Below, piece by piece: positions 8,266-25,746 of a stretch of 64,000 bases of DNA (position 1 is the stretch's first letter; each line of letters opens with the position of its first letter). The position numbers were made by a program, and so were the translations under genes. Under the pieces are notes generated by a model that worked only from the letters and a program-made list of their open reading frames with translations, ran no database searches and was not told the DNA's origin. Source of the stretch: Glycomyces amatae (GTDB taxonomy: Bacteria; Actinomycetota; Actinomycetes; Mycobacteriales; Micromonosporaceae); contig NZ_JAJLQZ010000005.1 of NCBI RefSeq assembly GCF_020991375.1, positions 310,001 through 374,000 of the forward strand, in the 5' to 3' direction.

Positions 8266-8916
8266 TCAGCGGCCCTTCGGCTGGAGCAGGCCCCGCTCGT
8301 ACGCGGCCGCGACCGCCGCGGCCCGGTCGTTGACCTCCAGCTTCGCGTACACGTGCACCAGGTGCGTCTTGACGGTGGCCTCGGAGATGAACAGCTCGGC
8401 GGCCGTCTCCCGGTTGCTGCGGCCCCTCGCGATGAGCGCCAGCACCTCCAGCTCCCGCTCGCTCAGCGGCCCCGCCGCCGCGGCGGGCCTGCGGACCCGG
8501 TCCATCAGGACCGACGCGACCGACGGCGCCAGCACCGTCCCGCCCTCGTGCGCCGCGCGGATGGCCCGCCGCAGCTCCTCCGGCGAGGCGTCCTTGAGCA
8601 GGTAGCCGCTCGCGCCCGCCTCGATCGCGGGCAGCACGTCCGAATCGGTGTCGTACGTGGTCAGCACCAGCACCTTCGCGTCCACGCGCCGCGCCGCGAG
8701 CTCCCGGATGGCGCTCACCCCGTCGGTCCCGGGCATGCGCAGGTCCATGAGGATCACGTCCGGTCCCAGCGCGAGCGCCCGGTCCACCGCCTCGCGCCCG
8801 TCCGCGGCCTCGCCGACCACGTCGACGTCCTCGGTCCGGTCGAACATGCCGCGCAGCCCGTCGCGCACCACCGGGTGGTCGTCGACGATGAGGACGCGGA
8901 TCGGCTCAGGCGCCAC
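8266..8916 (-). CDS. NarL/LuxR-family response regulator
   Basis: A 216-residue response regulator. The receiver domain (1-120) starts with IRVLIVDDHPVVRDGL; the phosphoacceptor Asp is in DVILMDLRMPGTDG, the conserved Thr in LVLTTYD and the Lys in GYLLKDAS. The C-terminal LuxR helix-turn-helix is LSERELEVLALIARGRSNRETAAELFISEATVKTHL. The GTG start lies 11 nt inside the end of the histidine kinase gene, so the two are co-translated. Together they form a two-component system that probably controls the ABC transporter genes at the start of the same operon. Confidence 0.95.
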   Translation of the reverse strand: MAPEPIRVLIVDDHPVVRDGLRGMFDRTEDVDVVGEAADGREAVDRALALGPDVILMDLRMPGTDGVSAIRELAARRVDAKVLVLTTYDTDSDVLPAIEAGASGYLLKDASPEELRRAIRAAHEGGTVLAPSVASVLMDRVRRPAAAAGPLSERELEVLALIARGRSNRETAAELFISEATVKTHLVHVYAKLEVNDRAAAVAAAYERGLLQPKGR

Positions 8917-10201
8917 CGGGCACCGCCTGCGCGATCGCCGGGACGCTCGCCGAGACCACGGTGCCCCGGCCCGGCTCGGACTCGACCGACAGCCGCCCGT
9001 CGAGGCGCCCGACCCGCTGGCGCATCGCCGACAGCCCGTACCCGCCGCCCTTCTCGACGGTCTTGGCGCGGCCCGTCTCGAAGCCGAGCCCGTCGTCGCG
9101 GACGTCGATCGCCAACTGATCCTCCATATACGACAGCGTGATGCCGACGCGGCCCGCCTCGGCGTGCTTGGCCACGTTCGTCAGCGCCTCCTGCGCGATC
9201 CGCAGCAGCGTCACCTCGACCTCCGGGTGCATCGGGCGGGCCTCGCCGGTCGTGACCAGCTCCACCGGGACCGACGCGGACGCCGACCACTTGGACGAGA
9301 CCTCCGCGAGGGCCTCCGGCAGCTGCGAGGACTCCAGCGCGGGCGGCCCGATGGCCTGCACGGTCCGGCGCGCCTCGGCCAGGCTGTCGCGGGCGAGGTC
9401 GAGCGCGCTGTCGAGGTGGCGCCGCCGCTGCGCCTCCTCGTCGGACCCGTCGACCGCGTGGAGCTGCGCGATGACCCCCGCCAGGCCCTGCGCGACGGTG
9501 TCGTGGATCTCGCGGGCCATGCGCTGGCGCTCGTCCAGGACCCCCGCCTCGCGGGCCTGGGTGAGCAGCTGCATGTGGAGCCCGGCGTTCTCCTCCAGGG
9601 CCTCCTCCCTGGAGCGGAGGGCCTCCTGGCGCTCGTCCTGGAGCCGCGTCATCTGGTCGTTGATCCGGTACCCGACGCTGATGGCCGTGATCTGCACCGC
9701 CAGGACGATGAGGTAGATCGTCACCATGTCGGTGCTCAGCCCGCCGCTGAGGATCGGGGCGTTCACCACGACCGAGGACGCCGCGATCCCGACCACCACG
9801 AGCCGGTGCGGCCCCAGCAGCGCGGCGTGGAAGAACCCGGTGGCGCCGAAGATGAAGTAGAGCATGTCGCGGCTGGTCAGCACCGCGGCCAGGGCGAGCA
9901 TGACGAAGAAGTACACGGTGAGGCGCCACGAGAACGCGGCGGGATCGGCGCACCCCGTCCCCGCGTCGTGCCGCGTGTCCTGCCGCGGGTACATCACCAG
10001 CACCCACAGGGCGGTGGCGGCGGCGATCGCGAGGGTGGCGAGCCGCTCGCCGATCCCCGCGTCGGAGAGGAGCTGCGTGAGGGCGACGCTGAACGCCAGG
10101 GTCGCGTACGGGAGCCGGTTGAGCAGCCGGTTGTAGCCGGCGTCGATCCTCGACTGCCGCCGCCTGAAATCGGCGGCGGTCGGCGACCCTGGCGTCTTCA
10201 T
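8906..10201 (-). CDS. Sensor histidine kinase (HisKA_3 type)
   Basis: A 431-residue membrane kinase. Residues about 25-180 contain four to five hydrophobic segments forming a membrane sensor with little outside the bilayer. A coiled region (QDERQEALRSREEALEENAG) leads to the dimerisation helix DERQRMAREIHDTVAQGLAG, whose His is phosphorylated. The ATPase domain shows LLRIAQEALTNVAKHA (N box), DVRDDGLGF (G1) and GYGLSAMRQRV plus PGRGT (G2). It is the partner of the response regulator encoded next. Its ATG is 1 nt beyond the permease stop. The arrangement transporter-kinase-regulator resembles peptide or antibiotic stress sensing systems. Confidence 0.95.
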   Translation of the reverse strand: MKTPGSPTAADFRRRQSRIDAGYNRLLNRLPYATLAFSVALTQLLSDAGIGERLATLAIAAATALWVLVMYPRQDTRHDAGTGCADPAAFSWRLTVYFFVMLALAAVLTSRDMLYFIFGATGFFHAALLGPHRLVVVGIAASSVVVNAPILSGGLSTDMVTIYLIVLAVQITAISVGYRINDQMTRLQDERQEALRSREEALEENAGLHMQLLTQAREAGVLDERQRMAREIHDTVAQGLAGVIAQLHAVDGSDEEAQRRRHLDSALDLARDSLAEARRTVQAIGPPALESSQLPEALAEVSSKWSASASVPVELVTTGEARPMHPEVEVTLLRIAQEALTNVAKHAEAGRVGITLSYMEDQLAIDVRDDGLGFETGRAKTVEKGGGYGLSAMRQRVGRLDGRLSVESEPGRGTVVSASVPAIAQAVPGGA

Positions 10202-10202
10202 G

Positions 10203-10937
10203 TCACTCCCACCTGAACATTCGGCCTGCGAGCACTCCGGCCACCACGGCGGTCGCGCCCATGACGAGCAGCTGCACCGCAGAGGGGGCGGCCCCGTCCC
10301 AGGTGTCGAGGAGCGCCTGCACGCCCGGCGGCATGTAGTCGCCGATGCGCACGACCGCGTCCGGCAGCATGAACCTCGGGATGTACACGCCGCCGAAGAA
10401 CATCGCCGCCATGAACAGCACGCTCGCGATGCTGGTGGCGGCGCGGATGGTCGGGGCCAGGGCCGCGACCAGCATACCGATCGCGAAGACCGCGCCGATG
10501 CCGAGGAGGAACGCGGCGGCGAACCCCAGCGGGTTCTCCGGCAGCGGCACGCCGTAGGCGATCCGTCCGGCCGCGACCACGAGCAGGGTCGACACCAGGG
10601 CCGCTCCGAGGTTGACGAGGAGCTGGGCGAGCAGGAGCCTGCCGGGGTGCACCGGGGTGGTCCTCATGCGGCGCAGGACGCCCTGCTCGCGGTAGGTCGC
10701 CATCATGACCGGCAGGTTCGTCAGGCCCACCACGCCCACGCACATGACGATCAGGGAGGGCGCGAAGTAGTCGATGAACCGGACGCCGCCGAACTCCGCC
10801 GAGGGCTCGCGCAGCATCGGCACGGCGCCGAGTCCGATCAGGACGACGGTGGGGAGGAGGAGGCCGACCGACAGCGACATGGGGTCGCGCAGGAACAGTC
10901 GGGCCTCGGTCTGGACGAGTTTCAGTGTCGATGACAT
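10203..10937 (-). CDS. ABC-2 type transporter permease (DrrB-like)
   Basis: A 244-residue protein with six hydrophobic segments typical of ABC-2 drug permeases. The N-terminus MSSTLKLVQTEARLFLRDP is the elbow helix, and the loop YREQGVLRRMRTTPVHPGRLLLAQ is the hallmark of the family, lying between helices 2 and 3. It pairs with the ATPase gene 28 nt upstream. The two should form an exporter for a hydrophobic drug or peptide. Kinase and regulator genes follow within 1 nt, so all four are likely one transcription unit. Confidence 0.92.
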   Translation of the reverse strand: MSSTLKLVQTEARLFLRDPMSLSVGLLLPTVVLIGLGAVPMLREPSAEFGGVRFIDYFAPSLIVMCVGVVGLTNLPVMMATYREQGVLRRMRTTPVHPGRLLLAQLLVNLGAALVSTLLVVAAGRIAYGVPLPENPLGFAAAFLLGIGAVFAIGMLVAALAPTIRAATSIASVLFMAAMFFGGVYIPRFMLPDAVVRIGDYMPPGVQALLDTWDGAAPSAVQLLVMGATAVVAGVLAGRMFRWE

Positions 10938-10965
10938 GGGGATGCTCCTGATCTCCTGGGGCGGT

Positions 10966-11874
10966 TCAGTTCTCGGGGGTCTTGCCGGTGAGGGCCACGA
11001 ACGCGTCCTCGAGGCTGACCTGCTCGACGCGCAGCTCCGCGGCGACGATGTGGTTGCGCGCCAGGACGGAGGTGACGGCCTGGAGCAGGTTGCCGCGGCC
11101 GGTGACGGCCACCTGCGGGCCGCTGCGGGCCACCTCGGCGACCTCGGGCAGGTCGAGCAGGAGCGCGTCCGCGAACGGGGCGGAGGGCCGGAAGCGGACC
11201 CGCTGCTCGTCCCCGGCGCGGGCGGTGAGTCCCGCGGGCGTGTCGAGGGCGACGACCTTGCCCGAGTCGATCACGGCGAGGCGGTCGCAGAGCCGCTCGG
11301 CCTCGTCCATGAAGTGCGTGACCAGGATGATCGTGACCCCGGAGTCGCGCACCTGCTCGATGAGGTCCCAGGTGTCGCGCCGCGCCTGCGGGTCCAGTCC
11401 GGTGGTGAGCTCGTCGAGCACCGCCACTTTCGGCCTGCCCACCAGCGCCAGCGCGATCGACAGTCGCTGCTGCTGGCCGCCGGAGAGCTTCCCGAACGGG
11501 GTCTTGCGCTTGCCGCCCAGGCCGAGCCTCTCGATGAGCTCGTCGGTGTCGGCCCGCCGCTTGTAGAACGAGCCGTACAGGTCCAGGGCCTCGCCGACGC
11601 GGAGCCGGTCGGGCAGGCGGCTCTCCTGCAACTGGATGCCGAGGACCTGCTTGAGCTCGGTGCCCTCGCGCCCGGGGTCGAGCCCCATCACCGAGACGCG
11701 GCCCGAGTCGCGCCGGCGCAGCCCTTCGAGGCACTCGACGGTGGTGGTCTTGCCCGCCCCGTTGGGGCCGAGGATGCCGAAGATCTCGCCTTCGTCCACA
11801 GTGAACGACACGCCGTCGACGGCTCGTTCCGTACCGTACTGCTTGACCAGTTCTTCGACTTCGATGAACGCCAT
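10966..11874 (-). CDS. ABC transporter ATP-binding protein (DrrA-like)
   Basis: A 302-residue ATPase. Motifs: Walker A GPNGAGKTTTVECL, Q loop IQLQES, signature LSGGQQQRLSIALAL, Walker B VAVLDELTTGLDPQ (with Glu replaced in the usual DEP order, here DEL) and the switch His ILVTHFMDE. A C-terminal domain of about 80 residues, common in the DrrA group, follows (LDLPEVAEVARSG...). It is the first gene of the operon ATPase-permease-kinase-regulator. A 20-bp palindrome lies about 100 bp upstream and may control the operon. Confidence 0.94.
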   Translation of the reverse strand: MAFIEVEELVKQYGTERAVDGVSFTVDEGEIFGILGPNGAGKTTTVECLEGLRRRDSGRVSVMGLDPGREGTELKQVLGIQLQESRLPDRLRVGEALDLYGSFYKRRADTDELIERLGLGGKRKTPFGKLSGGQQQRLSIALALVGRPKVAVLDELTTGLDPQARRDTWDLIEQVRDSGVTIILVTHFMDEAERLCDRLAVIDSGKVVALDTPAGLTARAGDEQRVRFRPSAPFADALLLDLPEVAEVARSGPQVAVTGRGNLLQAVTSVLARNHIVAAELRVEQVSLEDAFVALTGKTPEN

Positions 11875-12004: not shown

Positions 12005-12832
12005 TCAGGGCTTGACGGCGATCCCGGCCATGTGGGTGCGCTCGAACGGCGCGAGGTCGTCGACCGCGGGGACCGCCCGGTCCGGTTCGCCCGGGTGCCA
12101 GCGGGGGATGTACTCCAGGCCCGGCGGGACCATCGGCATCCCCTGGAAGTGGCGTTCGAGCCGCTCGACCGGGCGGCACCAGCCGTTGCCGAGGGTCTCC
12201 AGGCAGGCCCGGGACAGGCCGTGCTGGGCCGGTTCGCCGGTGTCGGGCCAGGCGGTGATGAGCAGGTGCGAGCCCGAGGCCAGGGGCGCCATGAGCTCGG
12301 CGATGATCGCGTCGGGCGACTCGCCCTCGGCGATCTGCATGATGGTCCCGGCGATCACGAGGCCCACGGGCCGGTCGAAGTCGAGGTGGGCGCGCACGTC
12401 GGGGTTGGCGAGGATGCCCGAGGGGTCGCGCAGGTCGGCGGTGACCACGGTGGTGGTCCGGTCGTCGGCCAGCAGGGCCCGGCCGTGCGAGAGGACCATC
12501 GGGTCGTTGTCGACGTAGACCACGCGCGCGTCGGGGTCGATCCCCTGGGCCGCCTCGTGTGTGTTCTCCTCGGCGGGCAGGCCGCAGCCGATGTCGAGGA
12601 TCTGGCCGATCCCGCCCTCGCCGACCATGTACCGGACGCCGCGCAGGAGCGCGGACCGGTTGAGGCGGGCGGCCTCCCGGACCCGGGGGCTCAGCCGCTC
12701 GAAGATCTCGGCGGCCCCGCGGTCGACCTTGAAGTTGTCCCGTCCTCCCAGGAGCGCGTCGTAGACGCGGGCGGCCGAGGGCACGTCGGGGTCGATGCCG
12801 GGGGCCGGCCACTCCGGGGCTGCATCGTTCAC
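12005..12832 (-). CDS. SAM-dependent methyltransferase, actinobacterial DUF574 family
   Basis: A 275-residue protein of the actinobacterial DUF574 (Methyltransf_19) family. Typical features are PSAARVYDALLGGRDNFKVDR at the N-terminus, the SAM-binding motif ILDIGCGLPAEENTHEAAQG, VVYVDNDPMVLSHGRALL, and the C-terminal PPGLEYIPRWHP. Family members are abundant in Streptomyces and relatives; the substrate is unknown for nearly all. The GTG start matches the usual family start (MNDAAPEW...GIDPDVPSAARVYD). It sits between the transporter operon and the biosynthetic cluster and may belong to either or neither. Confidence 0.88.
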   Translation of the reverse strand: MNDAAPEWPAPGIDPDVPSAARVYDALLGGRDNFKVDRGAAEIFERLSPRVREAARLNRSALLRGVRYMVGEGGIGQILDIGCGLPAEENTHEAAQGIDPDARVVYVDNDPMVLSHGRALLADDRTTTVVTADLRDPSGILANPDVRAHLDFDRPVGLVIAGTIMQIAEGESPDAIIAELMAPLASGSHLLITAWPDTGEPAQHGLSRACLETLGNGWCRPVERLERHFQGMPMVPPGLEYIPRWHPGEPDRAVPAVDDLAPFERTHMAGIAVKP

Positions 12833-13114: not shown

Positions 13115-15445
13115 TCAGGACCGCGCCGCCCTCCCGATCGGACGCCCGCCGCGCGGGGCGGTGAGCGGCTCGGTGAGCTCCAGCCGCCCCCGCACCGCCG
13201 TCACCAGCGGGTCGCCCACGGCCGCGAGCACCGCCTCGGCCTCGTGCCACTCCGCGCGCGCGTCCGCGATCTCGCCCAGGTCGAACCGCAGGTTCCCGAT
13301 CCGGTAGCGGAACCGGCCCTCGCTGAGCTGGTCGCCGATCTCGGCGGCGAGCCCCAGCGCCTTCCCGTAGGCCGCCATGGCCCGGCCGTGGTCGTCCATC
13401 TCCCGGCAGGTCTCGGCGATCACCTGGAGCGAGCGCATCTGCGCCCACCGGTTCCCGATCACCTCGGAGCGGTCGAGGGCGGCCTGGAACATCTTGAGCG
13501 CCATCTCGAACCGGCCCTGCGCGATGTACGCCCGCCCGATCGCGCACAGGCTCCCGCCCTCGCCCCAGGCGTCCCCGGCCCGCTCGGCGATGTCGTAGGC
13601 CCGCCGGGCGTGCTCGAGGGCCTCGCCGACCCGGTCGTGCACGACGCAGGCGTGGCTGAGCCCGCCGAGGGCCTGCACGAGCCCGGTCGCGTCCCCGGCC
13701 TCCTCGTAGAACGCCGCGGCGTCCCGCAGCAGGTCGATCGCGTCGCGGGAGCGGCGCAGCTCGGTGTAGGCGGCGGCGAGGTTGACCGCCAGGGCCGCGG
13801 CCACCGCGCGGTCGCCCGCGCGCCGCGCCGCGGCGAGCGCGGTCTCCCCGGTGGCCGCGTAGGACTGCCAGTGCCGCAGCAGGACGAAGAACCCGCCCGC
13901 CGCGTACGCGAGCCGCCACGACAGGGCGTCCTCGCCGGTCTCGGAGGCGAAGCGCACGAGCGCGGCGATGTTGTGCCGCTCGCGCTCGTACCACTCCAGG
14001 GCCTCGCGGGCGTTCGACATCGGCGCGTCCGGCAGGGCCGGGACGTCGAGTGCGAACCAGTCGGGCATGAGCAGCCGGGTCGCGGCCGCGGCGGTCCCGG
14101 TGTACCAGGCGAGGAGCCGCCGGGCGGCGTCGTCGGGCTCGTCCTCGGCGACCCACCGCGTGGCCGCGTACAGCCGCAGCAGGTCGTGCATCTGGTAGCG
14201 GCTCGGCCCCGAGCTCTCCAGGAGGTTCGCGTCGACCAGGGTCTCGAGGCGGAGCTCGGCCTCGCCCTCGCCGATCCCGGCCAGGCGCGCGGCGACCGCG
14301 GGCCCGAAGTCCACGCCGGGGAACAACGCTCCCAGCCTGCGGAACAGCAGCCGCTCGGCGTCCTCGAGGGCCCGGTAGGACATGGAGAACGCCTCCATGA
14401 GCCGCAGGTCCCCGGCCTCGAGCTCGGCCAGGCGGCGGGCCTCGTCGCGCAGCCGCTCGGTCAGCGTCGTGACCTTCCACTGGGGACGCGAGGCGAGCCG
14501 GGCCCCGGCGATGCGCAGCGCCAGCGGGTAGTGCCCGCACTGCTCGGCGAGCTCGGCGGCCGCCGCCGGCTCGGCCGCGACCCGCCCGGTCCCGGCGATG
14601 CGCCCCAGCAGCTCGAGCGACTCGGCCGCGCTGAACGGCTCCAGCTTGAGCGTCCGGGCCCCTTCGAGGCCGATGAGGTTGTTGCGGCTGGTCGCCAGCA
14701 CCAGGCACCCGGGCGCGCCCGGCAGGAGCGGACGCAGGTCGGCCTCCTCGCGGGCGTTGTCGAACACCAGCAGGCAGCGGCGGTGGCGCAGCAGCGACCG
14801 GTAGGCGCAGGCGAGCTCGTCGGGATCGGCGGGCACGCGCTCGTCCGGGTGCCCGAGGGCCCGGACGCACTGGCGCAGCACCGATTCGGGGGACAGCCGC
14901 CGCTCGTCGAAGCCGCGCATGTTGATGAACAGCTGGCCGTCGGCGTACTCGGGGGCGAGCCGGTGGGCGAGGTGGACGGCGAGCGCGGTCTTGCCCACGC
15001 CGGGGCCGCCGGTGACGCCCAGGACGGTGGGGGAGCTGCGGTCGGCCTCGTCGAGGCGCGCGAGGGTCGTCTCCAGGAGCCACTCGGTCTCCTTGGCGCG
15101 CCCGGCGAAGTCGGGCAGGTCGGCGGGGAGCTGGTAGGGCAGCGGGGCGGGGGCCGGCGCCGGCGCGGGCGCCCCCGCGAGGTCGTGTTGGAGCCGGTGC
15201 CACCGGCGGGCCCACGTCTCGGGGTCGGCGCCGCACGCGGCCGCGTAGGCCACGGTCACCTCCAGGGACGGCACCTCCCTGCCGGAGGCCGCGCGGGCGA
15301 GCGTGGACGCCGAGTAGTGGGCGCGGGCGGCCATCGCCCGGTAGGTGCGGTCCTCCGGCGCGGCGGCGCGGAGCTCGCGCAACCGCTGCGCGAACTGCTC
15401 GAGCGGACCCTGCCGCGGGTCGATCGGTTGCTCTGGTCGTCCCAT
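13115..15445 (-). CDS. XRE-NB-ARC-TPR regulator (AfsR-like without the SARP domain)
   Basis: A 776-residue regulator. Residues 10-80 form an XRE-like helix-turn-helix (LRELRAAAPEDRTYRAMAAR, then ASTLARAASGREVPSLEVTVAY). After an Ala-Pro linker comes an NB-ARC ATPase: P-loop GGPGVGKT at 146-153, CLLVFDNA (Walker B), LVLATSRN (sensor) and HYPLALRIAGARL (GxP motif). From about 530 to the end are tetratricopeptide repeats (ALGGLSHACVVHDRVGEALEHA, SLCAIGRAYIAQGRFEMALKMF). Such proteins commonly control antibiotic clusters. It is divergent from the halogenase gene, which supports control of that cluster. MGRPEQPI was chosen as start since GAGGGT lies upstream; the frame is open for 86 more codons but these look non-coding. 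Confidence 0.88.
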   Translation of the reverse strand: MGRPEQPIDPRQGPLEQFAQRLRELRAAAPEDRTYRAMAARAHYSASTLARAASGREVPSLEVTVAYAAACGADPETWARRWHRLQHDLAGAPAPAPAPAPLPYQLPADLPDFAGRAKETEWLLETTLARLDEADRSSPTVLGVTGGPGVGKTALAVHLAHRLAPEYADGQLFINMRGFDERRLSPESVLRQCVRALGHPDERVPADPDELACAYRSLLRHRRCLLVFDNAREEADLRPLLPGAPGCLVLATSRNNLIGLEGARTLKLEPFSAAESLELLGRIAGTGRVAAEPAAAAELAEQCGHYPLALRIAGARLASRPQWKVTTLTERLRDEARRLAELEAGDLRLMEAFSMSYRALEDAERLLFRRLGALFPGVDFGPAVAARLAGIGEGEAELRLETLVDANLLESSGPSRYQMHDLLRLYAATRWVAEDEPDDAARRLLAWYTGTAAAATRLLMPDWFALDVPALPDAPMSNAREALEWYERERHNIAALVRFASETGEDALSWRLAYAAGGFFVLLRHWQSYAATGETALAAARRAGDRAVAAALAVNLAAAYTELRRSRDAIDLLRDAAAFYEEAGDATGLVQALGGLSHACVVHDRVGEALEHARRAYDIAERAGDAWGEGGSLCAIGRAYIAQGRFEMALKMFQAALDRSEVIGNRWAQMRSLQVIAETCREMDDHGRAMAAYGKALGLAAEIGDQLSEGRFRYRIGNLRFDLGEIADARAEWHEAEAVLAAVGDPLVTAVRGRLELTEPLTAPRGGRPIGRAARS

Positions 15446-15747: not shown

Positions 15748-17352
15748 ATGGACACCTCTCCCACCGACCACCGGATCCGGAACGTGGTCGTGCTCGGCGG
15801 CGGCACGGCCGGCTGGATGACGGCCTCCTACGTGGCCAAGGCCTTCCAGGGGACCGTGAAGGTGACGGTGCTCGAGGCGCCCGCGATCCCCAGGATCGGC
15901 GTCGGCGAGGCCACCGTCCCCAACCTGCACCGGGCGTTCTTCTCGTTCCTCGGCATCGAGGAGGACGAGTGGATGCGCGAGTGCAACGCGAGCTTCAAGA
16001 TGGCCGTCAAGTTCGTCAACTGGCGCACCGAGGGCGAAGGGGTGCCGCACTCCCGCGACCACCGCGGCAAACCCGACCACTTCTACCACACCTTCGGCAT
16101 CCTCCCCGCCCACGAGCGGCTCCCGCTCTCGCACTACTGGGACGCCGCCCGCCGCGCCGGGCGCACCGACGAGCAGTTCGACTACGCCTGCTACCGCGAA
16201 CCGGCCGTCATGGACGCCAAGCTCTCCCCGCGCGACCGCGACGGCAACGCCTGGACCAACTACGCCTGGCACTTCGACGCCCACCTCGTGGCCGACTTCC
16301 TGTCCCGCTTCGCGACCAAGACCCTCGGCGTCGACCACGTGCAGGACCGCTTCACCGAGGCCGTCCGCGACGAGCGCGGCTTCGTCACCGCGCTCAAGAC
16401 CGAGGCCGGCAGGACCATCGAGGGCGACCTGTTCGTCGACTGCTCCGGCTTCCGGGGCCTGCTCATCAACCAGGTCATGCGCGAGCCGTTCCTCGACATG
16501 AGCGACTACCTCATGTGCGACAGCGCCGTGGCCGCCTCCGTCCCCCACGACGACGAGGCGAACGGCGTCGAGCCCTACACCTCCTCGATCGCGATGAAGA
16601 GCGGCTGGACCTGGAAGATCCCGATGCTCGGGCGCTTCGGCTCGGGCTACGTCTTCTCCAGCCGCTTCACCGACCGCGACACCGCCACCGAGGACTTCTG
16701 CAGGCTGTGGGGCCTCGACCCCGAGAACACGGACCTGAACCACGTCTCGTTCCGCGTGGGCCGCAACCGCCGCGCCTGGGTCAAGAACGTCGTCTCCGTC
16801 GGCCTCGCCTCGTGCTTCGTCGAGCCCCTGGAGTCCACCGGCATCTACTTCACCTACGCCGCGGCCTACCAGCTCGTCAAGCACTTCCCGGACAAGAACT
16901 TCGACCCGGTGCTCACCAAGCGCTTCAACGCCGAGATCGAGACCATGTTCGACGACACCCGCGACTTCCTCCAGGCGCACTTCAAGTTCGCGCCCCGCAA
17001 TGACACCCCCTTCTGGAGGGAGAACAAGAACCTGGTGCTGGACCCCGGGATGCAGGAGAAGGTCGACATGTACCGCGCCGGGCTGCCGGTGAACCAGCCG
17101 GTGAACGACGAGGCCACCTACTACGACAACTTCGAGGCCGAGTTCCGCAACTTCTGGACCAACGGCAGCTTCTACTGCATCTTCTCGGGGCTCGACTTCC
17201 TGCCCGAGCGCACCTACCCGTACCAGTCCCACCGGCCCGCCGACGCCGCCGGGGCCGAGCCGATCTTCGCACGGATAGCCGCCGAGCGCGACCGGCTCCT
17301 GGAGACCCTCCCCACCACGTACGAGTTCCTGCGCGGACTGCACGGGAAGTAG
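15748..17352 (+). CDS. FADH2-dependent tryptophan halogenase (PrnA-like)
   Basis: A 534-residue flavin-dependent halogenase. The FAD motif GGGTAGW is at 17-23, the halogenase motif WTWKIP at 287-292, the Lys that binds the hypohalous acid is most likely K84 ([12 protein letters not shown]) and the catalytic-region EPLESTG is at 359-365. Residues that hold free L-tryptophan in PrnA and RebH are also there: HTF near 114-116 and the C-terminal [13 protein letters not shown]. This favours free tryptophan over a carrier-bound substrate. The next gene is PrnB-like, so 7-chlorotryptophan is the expected product, by analogy with pyrrolnitrin. FADH2 would come from the flavin reductase three genes on. 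ATG 15748 follows AGGAG. Confidence 0.95.
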
Positions 17353-17369
17353 CCGGAGCCTCCGGCGAG

Positions 17370-17434
17370 CCCCCGCGCCGACCGCGGGGGCCACGACGCG
17401 CCGGGCCCGGCACTCCTCTGCCGCCGGGCCCGGC
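17370..17434 (+). other. Hairpin-rich spacer between the prnA-like and prnB-like genes
   Basis: The 106-nt gap holds an 8-bp hairpin CCCCCGCG/CGCGGGGG (17370-17390, 5-nt loop). Two identical self-complementary 12-mers GCCGGGCCCGGC follow (17400-17411 and 17423-17434), which can also pair with each other. This may be a partial terminator or an mRNA-stabilising structure that sets the ratio of halogenase to the genes after it. Confidence 0.45.
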
Positions 17435-17458
17435 CCTCTCCCGAAGGGCGACACCACC

Positions 17459-18547
17459 ATGCACCTGGCCGACCCCCGACTCCGCGACGCCCGCTTCGAC
17501 GGGGCGCGCACGGCCGGACTCGACCCCCTCGGCGCCGACGGGCCGCTGGCCGCCGTCCCGGCCATGAACGCCGGCGCCGACGTCCGGGCCCTCACCGCCG
17601 CGCTGCGCCGGCTCACCCCGAGCCTGCCCGAGGTGGCCGCGTTCGACTTCTGCGAGTGCCTGGCCGCCATGCGCGACCTCGGCCTGCTGCTCGGCTCGAT
17701 CAAGCGCCACGGCGTCCAGCCGCTCCCCGAGGTGCCCGGCCTCGAGACCGTGCTCGTCGAACTGGGGCGGCGCACCGAGATGATCCCGCGCGACACCGTC
17801 CACCACTACACCGAGTGGAACCCCCTGGGCCCCCGGCAGCGCATGTACACCGGCGACCCCCAGGAGACCGTCCTCATGGGAGGCCCCCGCGCCTCCATCC
17901 CCGAACTCGGCCAGGCCCTCGAACGCTGCGCGGCCCTGGCCGACACCGACGTCGCCGACCCCGCCTTCGCGCCGCTCCTCCAGGAGCTCGGCGACCACCT
18001 GGCGGCCTTCGAGACCGTCATCGCCGACGTCGTCGCCCGCGTCTCCCCGGAGTTCTTCGCCCAGCAGATGCGCCCCTACTACGAGGAGGTCGCGGTCGCC
18101 GGGCGCGACTGGCTCGGCCCGGCCGCCGCCCACGTCCCGCTCTACCTCGCCGACCTCGCCCTGTGGGCCTCGGACGACAACGACCCCGCCTACGAGGCGT
18201 TCCTCGAGGAGTCCGCCGAGCACACCCTCCCGGCCTGGCGGGGACTGGTGCGGCAGTGGCGCGACCGGCCCTCCATCGTGCGGCGCCTGCGCGAGGCCGC
18301 CGAGCCCGACCCGGCCCCCTGGGGCGCGCACCTGACGGCCCTGCACCGGGTCATGCGCTCCCTGGTGGTCTTCCGAGGCCGCCACCTCGGCATCGCCCGC
18401 AAGGCCTACAAGGAGGAGGTCCGCCTCTACGAGCTCGGCAGCGGCGGCGGCTCCATCGGCCTCCTCCAGTCCATCCTGGACCTCACCCGCGAGAACGCCG
18501 TGACCGCCAAGGCCCTCGCGCCCGCCCCCGCCGGGAGGACCGCATGA
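17459..18547 (+). CDS. PrnB-like enzyme (aminophenylpyrrole-forming, IDO/TDO superfamily)
   Basis: A 362-residue protein closely patterned like PrnB, the haem enzyme of the indoleamine/tryptophan 2,3-dioxygenase superfamily that rearranges 7-chlorotryptophan to monodechloroaminopyrrolnitrin. Shared blocks are AAMRDLGLLLGSIKRHG, HHYTEWNPLGPRQRMYTGDP, SPEFFAQQMRPYYEEV and WLGPAAAHVPLYLADLALW. His309 in VVFRGRHLGIARKAY aligns with the haem-ligand His of PrnB (His313). Length also agrees. It follows the halogenase and overlaps the next gene by ATGA. The likely reaction is conversion of halogenated tryptophan to an aminophenylpyrrole. Confidence 0.9.
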   Translation: MHLADPRLRDARFDGARTAGLDPLGADGPLAAVPAMNAGADVRALTAALRRLTPSLPEVAAFDFCECLAAMRDLGLLLGSIKRHGVQPLPEVPGLETVLVELGRRTEMIPRDTVHHYTEWNPLGPRQRMYTGDPQETVLMGGPRASIPELGQALERCAALADTDVADPAFAPLLQELGDHLAAFETVIADVVARVSPEFFAQQMRPYYEEVAVAGRDWLGPAAAHVPLYLADLALWASDDNDPAYEAFLEESAEHTLPAWRGLVRQWRDRPSIVRRLREAAEPDPAPWGAHLTALHRVMRSLVVFRGRHLGIARKAYKEEVRLYELGSGGGSIGLLQSILDLTRENAVTAKALAPAPAGRTA

Positions 18548-19788
18548 GGATCGTCATCGCCGGGGCCGGGATCGGCGGCCTCACCGCCGCCCTGAGCCTC
18601 CACCGCGCCGGGCACCGCGACCTCACCGTGCTCGAGGCCGCGCCCGAACTCCGCCCCCTGGGGGTCGGCCTCAACATCCTCCCCAGCGCCGTGCGCGAAC
18701 TCCACGCCCTCGGCCTCGAAGGCGCCGTCGAGGCGCACGCCGTCCCGACCGCCGAGCTCGCCTTCTACAACCGGCGCGGCGACCTGGTCTGGTCCGAGCC
18801 GCGCGGCCGCCTCGCCGGGCACCGCTTCCCGCAGTACTCCCTGCACCGCGGCCTCCTCCAGCGGGACCTCGCCGACGCCGTCGCCGCCGAGACCGGCCCC
18901 GGCACCGTCCGGACCGGACGGCCCGTCACCGGCTACACGAGGGACGGCGACCGCGTCCGCGTCCACACCCCCGCGGGCGACCTCGACGCCGACCTCCTCA
19001 TCGGCGCCGACGGCCTCCACTCCGCCGTCCGCGCCGCGATGCGCCCCGGCGAGCCCGCACCGGGCACCAACGGGCTCATGATGTGGCGCGGCACCACCCG
19101 CGCCCGCCCGTTCCTCACCGGCGCGTCCATGACCGTCCTCGGCGACGACCGCGCCAAGTTCGTCATCTACCCGATCCGGCCCGCCGACGAGACGGGCCTC
19201 GCCCTGGTCAACTGGGTCACCGGCCGCCCCGCCGACGGCCCCTCCGCCGCCACGACCACGGCCGCCCGCAAGCGCGAGGTCCTCGCCCAGTTCGGCGACT
19301 GGAAGGCGCCGTGGGTCGACATCCCCGGCCTCATCGGCGCCGCCGAGCAGATCCACGAGTACCCCATGCTCGACCGCCCGCCCCTGCCGGCCTGGAACGA
19401 CGGCCCCGTCACGCTCCTGGGGGACGCCGCCCACCCGATGTACCCCGTCGGCTCCAACGGCGCGACCCAGGCGATCATCGACGCGAGGGCCCTCGCCTGG
19501 CACCTCCACACCGCGCCCGACGCGCCGACCGCGCTGCGCGCCTACGAGTCCGAGCGGCTCCCGGCCACCCGCGGCGTCCAGGAGGCCAACCGCCGCATGG
19601 GGCCCGAGCGCGTCATCGACCTCGCCTGGCAGCGGGCCCCGCAGGGCTTCGACCGCATCGAGGACGTCTTCAGCCCCGAAGAGCTCCAGAGGATCTCGGA
19701 CGAGTACGCCTCCACCGCCGGGTTCACCGTCGAGGAGCTGGAGGGCGACTCCCCCTACACCTGCGGCCCGCCCGGGGAGGCGGCGTGA
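18544..19788 (+). CDS. PhzS-like FAD-dependent aromatic hydroxylase
   Basis: A 414-residue class A flavin monooxygenase. It shows the dinucleotide fold IVIAGAGIGGLTAALSLHRAG, the NADPH/FAD contact DLLIGADGLHSAVR and the second FAD motif LLGDAAHPMYPVGSNGATQAI. Segments such as VWSEPRGR, FPQYSLHRGLLQ and MMWRGTTRARPFL match the PhzS group, which hydroxylates and decarboxylates phenazine carboxylates. In this cluster the substrate is more likely the phenylpyrrole or a derived acyl aromatic; that is inference. It uses NAD(P)H and O2 and needs no separate reductase. Start ATG overlaps the PrnB-like stop. Confidence 0.85.
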   Translation: MRIVIAGAGIGGLTAALSLHRAGHRDLTVLEAAPELRPLGVGLNILPSAVRELHALGLEGAVEAHAVPTAELAFYNRRGDLVWSEPRGRLAGHRFPQYSLHRGLLQRDLADAVAAETGPGTVRTGRPVTGYTRDGDRVRVHTPAGDLDADLLIGADGLHSAVRAAMRPGEPAPGTNGLMMWRGTTRARPFLTGASMTVLGDDRAKFVIYPIRPADETGLALVNWVTGRPADGPSAATTTAARKREVLAQFGDWKAPWVDIPGLIGAAEQIHEYPMLDRPPLPAWNDGPVTLLGDAAHPMYPVGSNGATQAIIDARALAWHLHTAPDAPTALRAYESERLPATRGVQEANRRMGPERVIDLAWQRAPQGFDRIEDVFSPEELQRISDEYASTAGFTVEELEGDSPYTCGPPGEAA

Positions 19789-20384
19789 ACGCCACCGCGC
19801 GGCCCGCCGCGCCCGCCGACCGCCGCGCCGCCGCGGCGGGGGACCTGCGGACCCTCATGGCGGCCTTCCCCACCGGCGTCGCCGTCGTCGCCGCCTACGA
19901 CCCCGAGGGCGAGCCGTTCGGCATGACCTGCTCGTCCCTGTGCTCGGTCGCCCTGGAGCCGCCGACGCTGCTGGTGTGCCTGCGCGAGTCCGGCCCGACC
20001 GCCGGCGCGGTCCTCGCCTCCGGCGCCTTCACCGTCAACCTCCTCGACGGCGAGTCGCGGTCGGTCGCCGAGCTGTTCGCCTCCGGCGACCCCGAGCGGT
20101 TCGCCCGCGTCGACTGGGAGCCGGGCGCCGCGGGCCCGCACCTGGCCGCCGACGCCCACTCCACCGCCGACTGCCGGGTCTCGAGCACCTACAGCATCGG
20201 CGACCACGTGGTCGTCCTCGGCGAGGTCGCCGGGGTGACCGCCCACCGCGAGCCGCGGCCGCTCCTGTACGGCATGCGCCGCTTCAAGACCTGGGAAGGA
20301 GCGGAGTCCTGCCTGGACTCCGGCTGCTCGTGCCCCGACTCGGGTGCCCGACGACAACACGGCAATCACAACACGGAGAACTGA
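19785..20384 (+). CDS. Flavin reductase (NADH:FMN/FAD, PrnF-type role)
   Basis: A 199-residue member of the flavin reductase-like family. It has the split-barrel start LMAAFPTGVAVVAAYD, the flavin-binding MTCSSLCSVALEPPTLLVCL, the FTVNLLDGESRSVAELFAS stretch and GDHVVVLGEV. It should make free FADH2 for the halogenase. The C-terminus adds a Cys-rich tail (CLDSGCSCPDSG) of unknown role, not typical for the family. Start GTG overlaps the hydroxylase stop as GTGA; the stop overlaps the DoxX start as TGATG, so translation is coupled. Confidence 0.9.
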   Translation: MNATARPAAPADRRAAAAGDLRTLMAAFPTGVAVVAAYDPEGEPFGMTCSSLCSVALEPPTLLVCLRESGPTAGAVLASGAFTVNLLDGESRSVAELFASGDPERFARVDWEPGAAGPHLAADAHSTADCRVSSTYSIGDHVVVLGEVAGVTAHREPRPLLYGMRRFKTWEGAESCLDSGCSCPDSGARRQHGNHNTEN

Positions 20385-20746
20385 TGAACATCGCGACCAT
20401 CGTCATAGCCCTGCTGCTGGCGCTCGCCTTCGCCGCGTCCGGGGTCGTCAAGATCCTGTCGCTGCCCCCGGCCAAGGCCGACGCCGACCGCTTCGGCATG
20501 TCCTACAACGCCTTCAAGGGCATCGGCGTCCTCGAATTCCTCGGCGGCGCGGGCCTCGCGGTCGGGGCGCTCGTGGCCGACTTCTGGTGGGTCGGCGTCG
20601 CCGCCGCCGTCGGCCTCGTCCTGCTCACCGCCGGGGCGCTCGTGACCCACCTGAAGGCCGGCGACCCGGCCGCCAAGGCCGCCGGGGCCCCGCTGTTCGG
20701 CGTGCTCAGCGCCGTCGCCGGCGTCCTCATCTACCTCAACGCCTGA
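20384..20746 (+). CDS. DoxX-like membrane protein
   Basis: A 120-residue protein with four hydrophobic segments. The pattern ASGVVKILSL, FGMSYNAFKGIGVLEFLGGAGLAVGAL and a final helix fits the DoxX-like family (small quinone- or redox-linked membrane proteins). DoxX genes occur in several natural-product clusters, but their role there is not established. It is translationally coupled to the flavin reductase and is followed by a strong hairpin, so it ends the first sub-operon of the cluster. Confidence 0.8.
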   Translation: MNIATIVIALLLALAFAASGVVKILSLPPAKADADRFGMSYNAFKGIGVLEFLGGAGLAVGALVADFWWVGVAAAVGLVLLTAGALVTHLKAGDPAAKAAGAPLFGVLSAVAGVLIYLNA

Positions 20747-20752
20747 CCGGCC

Positions 20753-20777
20753 GCGGGGCCCGGCTCCCGGGCCCCGC
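20753..20777 (+). terminator. Hairpin between the oxidative and polyketide parts of the cluster
   Basis: A perfect 11-bp stem GCGGGGCCCGG/CCGGGCCCCGC with a CTC loop, 7 nt after the DoxX stop and 36 nt before the ketosynthase start. It may terminate or attenuate transcription into the ketosynthase-KAS III-ACP genes. Confidence 0.6.
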
Positions 20778-20813
20778 GCCTCCCCTTCCGCCCCTTCCGA
20801 AACGAGGCCACGC

Positions 20814-22501
<1,688 letters not shown>

Positions 22502-22505
<4 letters not shown>

Positions 22506-23554
22506 CCGCCGCCGCCGTCGTGGCCGGACTCGGTTCGGCCCTTCCCGAGCGCGCCGTCGGCAACGACGAGCTCGCCGCCCGCCTCGACGTCACCCCCGAG
22601 TGGATCGAGCGCCGCACCGGCATCCGCTCCCGCCGCTTCGCCGACCACACCACCCCGACCTCGGCGCTCGCCGCCGAGGCCGCCCGCGGCGCGCTCGCCG
22701 ACGCCGGGCTCACCTCCGCCGACGGCGCTTTCAACGGCGCCGTCGACGCGCTCATCGTCGCCACCTACACGCCCGACTACCAGATCCCCGCCACCGCGCC
22801 GCTCGCCGCCGCCGCGCTGGGCCTCGGCGCCGTCCCCGCCTTCGACCTCAACGCGGCCTGCTCCGGCTTCGTCTACGCCCTCGCCACCGCCGCGGGGCTC
22901 ATCGCCACCGGGGCCCGCCGCGTCCTCGTCGCCGGCGCCGAGACCGCCTCCACCCTCACCGACCCCGCCGACCGCACCGTCCACCCCCTCTTCGGCGACG
23001 GCGCCGGAGCGGTCCTCCTGCGGGCCGGCGACCCCGGCGAACCCGGCGCGCTCCTCGCCACCGACCTCGGCAGCGACGGCACCGGAGCCGGACGCCTCGC
23101 CGCCCCCGGCTCCGCCTCCCGCGCCCGCCTCCTCGACGCCGAAGGCGGGCGGCCGCGACCGGACCCGTCCTCCTACTTCATGGCCATGGACGGCCGCGAG
23201 GTCTTCCTCCAGGCCGTCGCCCGCATGAGCGCCTCCTCCAGGACCGTGCTCGACCGCGCCGGCGTCAAACCCTCCGAAGTGGACCGCATCTGCGGCCACC
23301 AGGCCAACGTCCGCATCCTCCGCGCCGTCGCCGACGAACTCGGCGCAGGCCACGACCGGCTCCTGGTCGACCTCGACCGCGTCGGCAACACCGGCGCCGC
23401 CTCCATCCCCCTCGCGCTCGACCGCGCCCGCGGCGCAGAACGCCTCGACCCCGGCGACACCGTCCTCCTGACCGCCTTCGGCGGCGGGTTCACCTGGGGC
23501 TCGGCGCTGCTGCGCTGGCCCGACACCCACCCACGGAAAGCAGGCCGATCATGA
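22502..23554 (+). CDS. KAS III (FabH-like) ketoacyl-ACP synthase
   Basis: A 350-residue thiolase-fold enzyme. Family marks: TPEWIERRTGIRSRRFAD (FabH N-terminal pattern), catalytic Cys in DLNAACSGFVYALA, His in ICGHQANVRI and Asn in VGNTGAASIPLAL, ending with GDTVLLTAFGGGFTWGSALL. All three catalytic residues are present. In a cluster it could prime the chain by condensing an acyl-CoA with malonyl-ACP, or act as an acyltransferase as CerJ- and PtmR-like relatives do. It overlaps both neighbours by ATGA. Confidence 0.92.
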
Positions 23555-23805
23555 CCACCGCAGACCGCGTCGCCGCCGTCGTCGCCAAATGGTGCCAGGC
23601 GAGCCCCGAGGAGCTCACCCCCGACACCCGCCTCGACGACCTCGACCTCGACTCGCTCAGCCGCCTGGAGACCGCCCTCGGCCTCCAGCGCGAGTTCCGC
23701 GTCGCCGTCGACGACACCCGCATGAACGACGCCGAGACCATCGCCGACGTCATCGCGATCGTCGAGACCAGCCCGCCCAAGACCGGCGACCCCGACGCGG
23801 TCTGA
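23551..23805 (+). CDS. Acyl carrier protein
   Basis: An 84-residue discrete carrier protein. The phosphopantetheine attachment site is the Ser in DDLDLDSLSRLE, preceded by LTPDTRL and followed by a third helix MNDAETIADVIAIVE. It is the likely partner of the ketosynthase and KAS III, which come just before it with ATGA overlaps. A phosphopantetheinyl transferase and an acyltransferase are not in the window and would have to act in trans. Confidence 0.93.
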   Translation: MTTADRVAAVVAKWCQASPEELTPDTRLDDLDLDSLSRLETALGLQREFRVAVDDTRMNDAETIADVIAIVETSPPKTGDPDAV

Positions 23806-23821
23806 GCCGGCCGCCGCGAAC

Positions 23822-25081
23822 ATGAGCGCCACCGCCGCACTCCTGCTGGCCCTGCTGGTCGTCGTCCTCGCCTGCCGGGCCGCGCACGCGGTCTGCCGCC
23901 GCCTCGGGCAGCCTCCCGTCCTCGGTGAGATCCTCGTCGGCATCCTCCTGGGTCCCAGCCTGTTCGGCATGGTCGCGCCCGAGGCGCACCGGACCCTGTT
24001 CGGCCCCGAGCTCGTCACCGTCATCGACGGGGTCAGCCAGATCGGCCTGGTCCTGTTCATGTTCACCGTCGGCCTCGAGTTCCCGATCGGGCGGCTGCGC
24101 AGCACCGCCCGCGTCGGCCTCGCCGTCTCGGGCGCGGGCATGGTCGTCCCGCTCGCGCTCGGCTTCGGCTTCGCGCTGTGGGCCGGACCGGCCCTCGGCC
24201 TCTTCCCCGCCGGGGTCGACCCCGCGATCGGGGCCCTGTTCATCGGCCTGCTCCTGGCGATCACGGCGTTCCCCGTGATGGCCCGCATGATCGCCGACCA
24301 CGGGGACGTGCGCACCCGCTTCGGGTCGGTGTCCCTCACCGCCGGGGCCCTCGACGACGCGGCCGCGTGGATCCTCCTCGCCGTGGTCCTGGCCGCCTTC
24401 GGGACCGGCAGCGGCGCCTCCGCCGTCATCGCCGTCGCAGGACTGCTGGTCCTGGCCGCCGCGCTGCCGCTCGTGCGCCGCGCGGCCGACCGCTGGATCG
24501 CGACCCGGAACCCCGGCCGCGACGCCGTCCTCGTCGCCGCCGCGCTCGGGCTGCTGGCCGCCGCCGGGTTCACCGAGCTCATCGGGATCCACGCCGTGTT
24601 CGGCGCGTTCGCCCTCGGGGCGGCCGTCCCGCGCGGCGCCGCCGCCGAGGTCCTGGCCGAGCGCATCCGCCCGCTCACCACGGTCCTGTTCCTGCCCTTG
24701 TTCTTCGTGCACTCGGGCATGAACACCGACCTGGGGCTCATCGACGGGGCCGGGCTCCTCGCGGGCGCCGGGGCGCTCGTGGCGCTGGCCTTCGCCGGGA
24801 AGCTCGGGGCGTGCACCGCCGCCGCGCGCCTGGCGGGGGAGACGTGGGCCGACGCGGCCCGGATCGGCTGCTACATGAACGCGCGCGGCCTGATGCAGCT
24901 GGTGGCGCTCGACATCGGGCTGCGGGCGGGCCTGATCGACCCGGCGGCGCACGCGATGATCGTGGTCGTCGCGGTCGCCACCACCTTCGCGACCGCGCCG
25001 GGCCTGGCCCTGGTCGACCGCCTCGTCCGGCGCCGAGCCCGTCCGGAACCGGAGCGCGAACCCGCGTTGGCGAGCACCTAG
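23822..25081 (+). CDS. CPA2-family cation:proton antiporter
   Basis: A 419-residue membrane protein with about 12 hydrophobic segments. CPA2 (KefB/NapA) features: PPVLGEILVGILLGPSLFG in the second helix, VLFMFTVGLEF, AITAFPVMARMIADHG, GALDDAAAW with the two neighbouring Asp residues of the ion site, and FLPLFFVHSGMNTDL. Genes of this family are often found in polyketide clusters, where they may help export or pH homeostasis. It begins 16 nt after the ACP gene and is probably the last gene of the cluster operon. Confidence 0.9.
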   Translation: MSATAALLLALLVVVLACRAAHAVCRRLGQPPVLGEILVGILLGPSLFGMVAPEAHRTLFGPELVTVIDGVSQIGLVLFMFTVGLEFPIGRLRSTARVGLAVSGAGMVVPLALGFGFALWAGPALGLFPAGVDPAIGALFIGLLLAITAFPVMARMIADHGDVRTRFGSVSLTAGALDDAAAWILLAVVLAAFGTGSGASAVIAVAGLLVLAAALPLVRRAADRWIATRNPGRDAVLVAAALGLLAAAGFTELIGIHAVFGAFALGAAVPRGAAAEVLAERIRPLTTVLFLPLFFVHSGMNTDLGLIDGAGLLAGAGALVALAFAGKLGACTAAARLAGETWADAARIGCYMNARGLMQLVALDIGLRAGLIDPAAHAMIVVVAVATTFATAPGLALVDRLVRRRARPEPEREPALAST

Positions 25082-25157: not shown

Positions 25158-25269
25158 CGCGCGGCGCCGCCCCGACCCGGACGGAGCGCGGGCCTGCCGC
25201 GGGACCTGAGCCGGCCCGCGTGGCCGACGACACCCGCCACCGGTCGTGGCCTGCGAGTATGCTTGGCGC

Positions 25270-25746
25270 ATGGAGGAACACGCGGACGAGCCGATGGGCA
25301 TGGGCACCGTGCTGGTGCGCACGGCCTTCCTGGTCGACGCCGTCTACGCCGACTCGGTCCGCGACTTCGACCTCACCGTGCCGCAGGCCCAACTGCTGTG
25401 CGTGCTCATGGCCCGCCCGTACGGGATGTTCGAGCTCGCCAAGACCCTCGGCCTCGCCAAGTCCAGCATCTCCGGCCTCGTGGACCGCTCCGCCAAGCGC
25501 GACCTGGTGCGCCGCGAGGCCGACCCCGGCGACGGCCGGGCCTTCCGGGTCGCGCTCACCGCGAAGGGCGCCCAGCTCGCCGAGGAGTTCCACGACGCGA
25601 CCACCCGCCGCGTCGCCGAGCTGCCGCTCGGCCTCTCGGAGGCCGAGCGCGCCGTGCTCGTCGGCCTGCTCGCGAAGGTGGTCACCGACAACGAGGTGCC
25701 GGTGGTCTTCACCGACGGCGAGTGCCCCTCGGCCGGCGGGAGCTGA
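25270..25746 (+). CDS. MarR-family transcriptional regulator
   Basis: A 158-residue winged-helix protein: LTVPQAQLLCVLMARPYGMFELAKTL then the recognition helix KSSISGLVDRSAKRDLVRREADPGDGRAFRVALTAKG, the standard MarR wing. The MarR fold usually binds a palindrome as a dimer. ATG 25270 has a TATGCT -10 element (25258-25263) just 6 nt before it and no ribosome site, so a leaderless mRNA is likely. It lies just beyond the biosynthetic cluster and is bracketed by direct repeats. It might control the cluster or the convergent flavoprotein gene; neither is shown. Confidence 0.88.
   Translation: MEEHADEPMGMGTVLVRTAFLVDAVYADSVRDFDLTVPQAQLLCVLMARPYGMFELAKTLGLAKSSISGLVDRSAKRDLVRREADPGDGRAFRVALTAKGAQLAEEFHDATTRRVAELPLGLSEAERAVLVGLLAKVVTDNEVPVVFTDGECPSAGGS

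What the first reader, a model, noticed from the sequence alone, without database searches (positions are those of the whole stretch)
15748..25081. PrnA/PrnB-like pair joined to AT-less polyketide genes: candidate new phenylpyrrole-polyketide pathway
Seen: a PrnA-type tryptophan halogenase, a PrnB homologue with the haem-ligand His, a PhzS-like hydroxylase, a flavin reductase, DoxX, a ketosynthase without AT, KAS III, ACP and an antiporter, almost all with 1-4 nt overlaps. Known: PrnA and PrnB make 7-chlorotryptophan and then monodechloroaminopyrrolnitrin; PrnC (second halogenase) and PrnD (Rieske N-oxygenase) finish pyrrolnitrin. Neither PrnC nor PrnD is in the window. Inference: the aminophenylpyrrole is not turned into pyrrolnitrin but is hydroxylated and acylated or extended by the KS/KAS III/ACP set. 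I know of no described product of this kind.
Basis: partly seen in the sequence, partly recalled or inferred. Interest (0 to 1): 0.88.

Follow-up and report, generated by a model that had tools for sequence, protein, structure and literature searches.

The report
Halogenase, PrnB and ketosynthase gene cassette
A ten-gene cassette in an actinobacterium (Glycomyces) looks able to chlorinate tryptophan, rearrange it as in the making of the antifungal pyrrolnitrin, and then hydroxylate and acylate the product instead of finishing pyrrolnitrin, so its product is probably an undescribed relative of a known alkaloid class.

Summary
The gene list is right; two details are not. The halogenase is nearer to the tryptophan 6-/7-halogenases Thal and RebH than to PrnA, and 5 (not almost all) of 8 gene junctions overlap. 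The PrnB homologue is real: fold match to PrnB (TM 0.88), haem His and carboxylate-binding Ser kept. It occurs in 3 of 22 Glycomyces genomes. The whole genome shows no PrnC or PrnD homologue and one acyltransferase (FabD-like), so pyrrolnitrin is very unlikely and the lone ketosynthase must borrow malonyl-ACP. So this is a halogenated branch of a broad family, with no product found for it here. Most likely product: a chlorinated, hydroxylated aminophenylpyrrole with a short polyketide acyl group; no chemistry is shown. New variant of a known kind.

The parts
13115..15445 (-). Divergent regulator: helix-turn-helix (HTH_31), NB-ARC, TPR
15748..17352 (+). Flavin-dependent tryptophan halogenase, Thal/RebH-like; K84, E362 and WTWKIP present
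   Evidence: the only full-length PF04820 match in the genome
17459..18547 (+). PrnB homologue; haem ligand H309, carboxylate-binding S328, Y117 where P. fluorescens PrnB has V117
   Evidence: model pLDDT 86.1, TM 0.88 to PrnB
18544..19788 (+). PhzS-like flavin hydroxylase (PRK07538 family)
   Evidence: NCBIfam 513 bits over cut-off 400; structures 2rgj and 3c96 at 8e-84, titled 'flavin-containing monooxygenase' (that these are PhzS is recalled)
19785..20384 (+). Flavin reductase
   Evidence: PF01613, 1.2e-36
20384..20746 (+). DoxX_2 small membrane protein
   Evidence: PF13564, 2.6e-16
20814..22505 (+). Stand-alone type I ketosynthase without AT; C175, H311, H351 intact
   Evidence: one of two full-length KS matches in the genome, the other lying beside the AT on C66 and FabF-like
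22502..23554 (+). KAS III; C120, H266, N296 intact
23551..23805 (+). Acyl carrier protein; DSL serine S35
23822..25081 (+). Cation:proton antiporter
   Evidence: PF00999; 36% identical to the antiporter beside prnABCD in Azotobacter salinestris

Best explanation
A ten-gene cassette, gained or lost as a whole, for one small molecule. The halogenase, fed with reduced flavin by the reductase, chlorinates (or brominates) tryptophan, more likely at C6 than C7. PrnB rearranges and decarboxylates the halotryptophan to a 3-(2-amino-chlorophenyl)pyrrole (the 4-chloro isomer if C6 is hit). The PhzS-like enzyme hydroxylates that core. KAS III joins an acyl-CoA to malonyl-ACP, the malonyl group being loaded by the one cellular FabD; the KS extends the chain or transfers it; the aniline nitrogen or the new hydroxyl takes it up, giving an acylated, perhaps ring-closed (pyrroloquinoline or quinolone-like) product. 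The antiporter and DoxX serve export or tolerance; the NB-ARC regulator controls the set. Shown here: gene content, family membership, catalytic residues, cassette limits, no pyrrolnitrin finishing genes found. Inferred: every chemical step and their order.
For: Halogenase catalytic residues intact. PrnB sequence, fold and pocket residues match the two crystallised PrnB proteins far better than SO4414. PrnB is directly followed by the hydroxylase in 69 of 79 named-genome loci, so the two probably act together. In L033 a methyltransferase of the LCM family is fused to the hydroxylase, in L123 it follows it, as expected if the hydroxylase makes a methylatable group. Locus L054 has PrnB-hydroxylase-KS with an AMP-ligase and an ACP and no KAS III, so a carrier-bound acyl group looks like the common need. 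A tryptophan-making gene (IGPS) sits in 9 of 80 loci, and in L041 IGPS and a PALP-family (TrpB-like) gene follow the run. Exact empty sites. One AT in the genome.
Against: No substrate or product is known to me for any enzyme of this clade. In vitro activity of PrnB has been hard to reconstitute, and it was inactive with common redox systems (PMC11791213, abstract). Y117 should narrow the pocket; FbPrnB, with the same Tyr, still binds 7-Cl-Trp and Trp. The KS kin in 12 loci beside PrnB have Gln for the catalytic Cys and are not expected to condense, and type A loci have no KS at all, so the KS is not needed for all products of this family. The KAS III of the Streptomyces plasmid locus is spread over several reading frames, and in Lentzea my gene caller found only 170 residues of it.
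Confidence: 0.55

Rival explanations
1. The product is a member of the known marinoquinoline-type aminophenylpyrrole alkaloids with a chlorine and a different acyl group: KAS III/KS/ACP only supply the acyl chain, the amine is acylated and the ring closes to a pyrrolo[2,3-c]quinoline.
For: 3-(2'-aminophenyl)-pyrrole and marinoquinoline A were both isolated from strains of Rapidithrix thailandica (PMC2630848, abstract start in the listing); PrnB can take tryptophan itself to aminophenylpyrrole (PMC11434214, passage citing the 2019 work). The Streptomyces sp. 3211 locus has PrnB followed by a GNAT acyltransferase.
Against: No cyclase or GNAT-type acyltransferase gene was recognised in the cassette; the hydroxylase has no role in that scheme as I recall it; the marinoquinoline cluster itself could not be read.
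Confidence: 0.2
2. The PrnB-like protein does not make aminophenylpyrrole but hydroxylates or otherwise oxidises (halo)tryptophan, as other haem enzymes do.
For: A PrnB homologue in a Paenibacillus lipopeptide cluster was predicted, with caution, to hydroxylate Trp, and Luz15 is a Trp 5-hydroxylase of a haem-dependent family (PMC13036774 passage; the same passage says that the homologue does not clade with Luz15). I found no assay of an actinobacterial PrnB-clade enzyme in the searches named.
Against: Profile match to crystallised PrnB 9e-88 and 2e-71 against 3e-9 for SO4414; fold TM 0.85-0.89 to the twelve PrnB chains, 0.57-0.74 to the SO4414 and IDO chains listed.
Confidence: 0.17
3. KS, KAS III and ACP form a separate short acyl-chain or lipid pathway that merely shares the operon, for example for membrane adaptation to the toxic phenylpyrrole.
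For: Type A loci in many Streptomyces have no KS; membrane genes (DoxX, antiporter) are in the cassette.
Against: A KS lies in 17 of 79 PrnB loci and here in one run with PrnB; KS-bearing layouts cluster on the PrnB tree.
Confidence: 0.07
4. A degraded or unlinked pyrrolnitrin pathway.
For: A prnA/prnB-like pair comes first; an antiporter and a flavin reductase also lie beside prnABCD in Azotobacter.
Against: No PrnC or PrnD homologue found in a genome rated 100% complete; all genes open and conserved in three species.
Confidence: 0.01

Closest known systems
Pyrrolnitrin cluster prnABCD (Pseudomonas, Burkholderia, Azotobacter)
   Same: Trp halogenase then PrnB; 58% and 37% identity to the Azotobacter PrnA and PrnB; a flavin reductase and a 36% identical antiporter also lie beside the Azotobacter set
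   Different: No PrnC, no PrnD; adds hydroxylase, DoxX, KS, KAS III, ACP; pocket residue Val117 is Tyr; halogenase nearer Thal/RebH
Aminophenylpyrrole-derived alkaloids (marinoquinolines; Linares-Otoya 2019, doi 10.1021/acschembio.8b00993, seen only as a citation)
   Same: PrnB-type step on tryptophan as branch point to products other than pyrrolnitrin
   Different: Gene set of that pathway not seen; no halogenase or PKS-type KS in it as far as I recall
Thal and RebH, tryptophan 6- and 7-halogenases
   Same: 840 and 825 bits by phmmer
   Different: Context is PrnB; mixed letters at the five switch sites
PhzS-like monooxygenases (PRK07538)
   Same: Over the family cut-off
   Different: Substrate must differ (inference)
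RedP/RedR/RedQ of prodiginine pathways (recalled)
   Same: A KAS III, a KS and an ACP that make an acyl chain for a pyrrole product
   Different: KS here is PKS type I-like with a post-KS linker; downstream enzymes differ

Membership tests
Pyrrolnitrin (prn) pathway | Trp 7-halogenase PrnA | tested here: inconclusive
   Halogenase present; V57, V87, S474 as in Thal (6), T364 as in the 7-type, G473 as in Thal and Azotobacter PrnA
Pyrrolnitrin (prn) pathway | PrnB | tested here: met
Pyrrolnitrin (prn) pathway | PrnC second halogenase | tested here: not met
   Whole genome: best 19.6 bits over 57 residues; PF04820 finds only the one halogenase and, weakly, the hydroxylase
Pyrrolnitrin (prn) pathway | PrnD Rieske N-oxygenase | tested here: not met
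   Whole genome: best 37.5 bits over 91 residues
PrnB enzyme family | IDO-like fold with haem His and substrate-carboxylate Ser | tested here: met
   H309, S328 invariant in 25 sequences; TM 0.88 to 2x67
PrnB enzyme family | Converts (halo)Trp to aminophenylpyrrole | not testable with these tools
   needs expression and LC-MS
Aminophenylpyrrole-derived alkaloid pathway | PrnB-type step with tailoring genes other than those of pyrrolnitrin | tested here: met
   gene content only
Aminophenylpyrrole-derived alkaloid pathway | Aminophenylpyrrole-derived product | not testable with these tools
   no metabolite data
trans-AT polyketide synthase | Dedicated trans-acting AT | tested here: not met
   Only one PF00698 match in the genome, beside a FabF-like KS on C66, so FabD
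Two-component flavin-dependent Trp halogenase | WxWxIP, catalytic Lys and Glu, flavin reductase partner | tested here: met
   roles of Lys and Glu recalled

The most novel reading that the evidence does not exclude
A new family of hybrid natural products: halogenated aminophenylpyrroles onto which a single free-standing ketosynthase, the only PKS-type KS found in the genome, puts a polyketide chain started by a dedicated KAS III, with FabD as the sole malonyl source. It is one branch of a large, uncharacterised actinobacterial family built on a PrnB-hydroxylase pair, whose other branches use a Gln-type (decarboxylase-like) KS, an HpaB oxygenase or a methyltransferase.
Probability: 0.42. Interest if true: 0.8.

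Novelty: new variant of a known kind. Interest (0 to 1): 0.62.

Why it matters
How PrnB works is an open problem: its activity has been hard to reconstitute in vitro and it was inactive with common redox systems (PMC11791213, abstract). A large natural family, here 69 loci in named genomes, in which PrnB is followed by one flavin hydroxylase gives many new enzymes to try and may show what the true partner reactions are. The Glycomyces cassette is compact, has exact limits from empty sites, and the halogen gives an isotope handle, so the pathway can be tested directly. If the reading holds, it links phenylpyrrole chemistry, the basis of antifungals, to polyketide chemistry.

Tried and rejected
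Pyrrolnitrin: rejected, no PrnC or PrnD found in the genome. trans-AT PKS: rejected, single AT; the top structure hit of the KS, 7zma at 555 bits, has two matched stretches and so looks like a sum over two KS domains, the next being CurL at 387. Methyltransferase 12005-12832, MarR 25246-25746 and the ABC transporter/two-component genes 8266-11874 as cluster parts: rejected; the first two flank the empty sites in all five cluster-free loci read, the others are present in cluster-free L139. Cytochrome bd genes as a self-resistance hint: cydA in one locus only (L123; 1 of 80), dropped. A halogenase tree: not built, the named halogenase sequences were not in the box. The PrnB tree is a quick one with long branches; before building it I dropped seven duplicate loci, three SO4414-like proteins and one gene call outside 250-450 residues (L080). 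In that tree L040 was labelled Gln-type; a later look at its longer frame shows Cys, so that label is wrong there. Gene calls in fetched loci come from a simple codon-usage caller of my own, not from a standard program; some genes were missed or merged.

Errors of mine: I gave DoxX and ACP in a wrong frame (no hits); they were repeated in frame. My label SARP for the regulator in scripts and notes is wrong: no such domain was found.
Full report
Where it is. The window is G000:C45:310001-374000 of a 6.17-Mb, 68-contig genome rated 100% complete. So the organism is a Glycomyces.

What is there. Junctions in nt: halogenase/PrnB +106, PrnB/hydroxylase -4, hydroxylase/reductase -4, reductase/DoxX -1, DoxX/KS +67, KS/KAS III -4, KAS III/ACP -4, ACP/antiporter +16.

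Limits. The cluster PrnB is in 3 of 22 Glycomyces genomes (own, G291, G323); a fourth, G252, has a distant one at 42%. I read the site in five cluster-free genomes. In three (L139, L141, L142) the methyltransferase homologous to window 12005-12832 and the MarR homologous to 25246-25746 are next to each other, about 250-405 nt between the matched ends. In two (L140, L143) about 3.8 kb of other DNA lies there, which I did not identify. In the window, L052 and L053 the regulator and the nine genes lie between the same two neighbours. So the unit is a ten-gene cassette gained or lost as a whole, and the flanking methyltransferase and MarR are not part of it.

Halogenase. Full-length PF04820 protein, the only one in the genome; the second, weak match is the hydroxylase. 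phmmer bits: Thal 840, RebH 825, PrnA 703. A review table seen as a passage (PMC7644825) says that V52I, V82I, S360T, G469S, S470N turn Thal from a 6- into a 7-halogenase. The alignment puts V57, V87, T364, G473, S474 there in the window protein; both Glycomyces relatives have the same letters, and Azotobacter PrnA has I, I, T, G, N. Four of the five thus have the Thal letter and one the 7-type letter; G473 is shared with PrnA and tells little. I take 6-chlorination as more likely, not as shown.

PrnB. Matches P. fluorescens PrnB (2v7i, 2.6e-59) and the Flavobacteriales PrnB (9dfg, 1.2e-46). With a profile of 12 family members the values are 9e-88 and 2e-71, against 3e-9 for SO4414. By the numbering of PMC11791213 (abstract, section 7 and passages seen), FbPrnB Ser319 is window S328, and FbPrnB Tyr104 / PfPrnB Val117 is window Y117; His313 as haem ligand is recalled and is window H309. 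That site is Tyr in 21 of 24 distinct actinobacterial rows (Gln in the three SO4414-like ones) and Val in the Burkholderia and Azotobacter prn proteins. An AlphaFold model of the window protein, with an alignment of 25 sequences, has mean pLDDT 86.1 and pTM 0.84; the first twelve Foldseek hits in the PDB are all PrnB chains (TM 0.85-0.89 on the query), then SO4414 and human IDO chains (0.57-0.74 in the rows listed).

Condensing enzymes. KS C175-H311-H351, KAS III C120-H266-N296, ACP S35. The genome has one PF00698 acyltransferase (C66) and two full-length KS matches, this one and one 1.3 kb from that acyltransferase; three further KS matches are fragments of 20-22 bits. So this KS is the only PKS-type one found, and its malonyl-ACP must come from FabD (inference). 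NCBIfam places the KS nearest to the KS domain of one type I PKS family (NF045894, 558 bits over its first 517 positions), below that full-length family's cut-off of 1740.

The wider family. PrnB loci came from three sources: 23 of 397 genomes of the order, 6 plasmid records, and 80 loci kept of 104 confirmed in named genomes. In 79 of those 80 a PrnB gene was called (not in L128). Best-hit labels anywhere in the 79: hydroxylase 69, KS 17, KAS III 4, DoxX 4, ACP 4, halogenase 2, the last both Glycomyces. PrnB is directly followed by the hydroxylase on the same strand in 69 of 79; of the other ten, two end at a contig edge, in L080 and probably L060 my gene caller went wrong, and six have another neighbour. 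In the set, PrnB loci without hydroxylase also occur (L030, L037, L039, L042, L044, L046, L047). On a quick PrnB tree of 94 rows the layouts cluster (12 changes against 37.9 in shuffles). Types C and D without halogenase form one set of six (99). The three Glycomyces proteins (100) fall with that set and with the methyltransferase-type loci in a larger set of 16 with weaker support (91), so types C with and without halogenase are not shown to be sisters. That the halogenase was added to a halogen-free pathway is an inference from its presence in Glycomyces alone among the actinobacterial loci labelled.

Gln-type KS. All 12 distinct type B loci have Gln in place of the catalytic Cys, while the window and the type C and D proteins have Cys (L040 also Cys). 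Mean identity is 64% within nine Cys proteins, 63% within twelve Gln proteins and 51% between them (duplicates and L040 left out). Gln-type KS domains are known from PKS loading modules as malonyl decarboxylases (recalled). So two different uses of a KS seem to have become tied to PrnB-hydroxylase.

How it most likely works is set out under Best explanation. Every chemical step is inferred from family knowledge; what is shown is gene content, residues, limits and distribution.

Novelty. Ten searches of an open-access library (one search was on halogenases only) listed no paper that describes a PrnB-KS pathway, as far as titles and abstract starts show; some searches listed only 20 of 54, 20 of 24 and 15 of 113 papers found. 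Most subscription papers are missing there, the 2019 aminophenylpyrrole paper among them (seen as a citation; not held), so novelty of the product class is not proven. PrnB acting on tryptophan to give aminophenylpyrrole is already in print according to PMC11434214 (passage). I therefore file this as a new variant of a known kind.

Noticed in passing
L056, L058, L065, L068, L074, L077, L084, L085, L089, L102, L103, L104 (KS genes upstream of PrnB): Free-standing ketosynthases with the catalytic Cys replaced by Gln, upstream of PrnB; as far as I recall, stand-alone Gln-type KS genes are unusual.
   Followed up: partly
L097 5947-12410 and similar loci: AraC regulator, HpaB oxygenase, MFS, PrnB, PhzS-like hydroxylase: a compact layout in many Streptomyces (an HpaB match in 58 of 80 loci) and in Crenobacter; no product known to me.
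   Followed up: partly
window 52342-57377 (+): HerA/DUF87-like gene (PADLOC mad8, 2.6e-18) overlapping by 4 nt an AbiU-like gene (6e-101): candidate phage-defence pair.
   Followed up: no
L029 11953-13946: Streptomyces sp. 3211 plasmid: PrnB-like gene followed by a GNAT acyltransferase, no hydroxylase annotated nearby; could be an N-acyl aminophenylpyrrole route.
   Followed up: no
L030 8708-10452: Another Glycomyces (G252) has a different PrnB (42%) behind a LysE exporter; a LysE gene also lies upstream of prnABCD in Burkholderia pyrrocinia (L027).
   Followed up: no
L140 7764-11608 and L143 7124-10965: Two Glycomyces carry about 3.8 kb of other DNA at the site where the cassette sits, so the site may be a hot spot; contents not identified.
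   Followed up: no
L123 2588-8798: PrnB, hydroxylase and LCM methyltransferase followed by cytochrome bd genes; possible link to respiration, cydA seen in 1 of 80 loci.
   Followed up: no
L048, L049, L050: Pfam PF08933 scores these proteins at 288-329 bits and the window PrnB at 132; L048 matches SO4414 at 8e-84 and PrnB at only 1e-8, so the family name PrnB covers at least two branches.
   Followed up: partly
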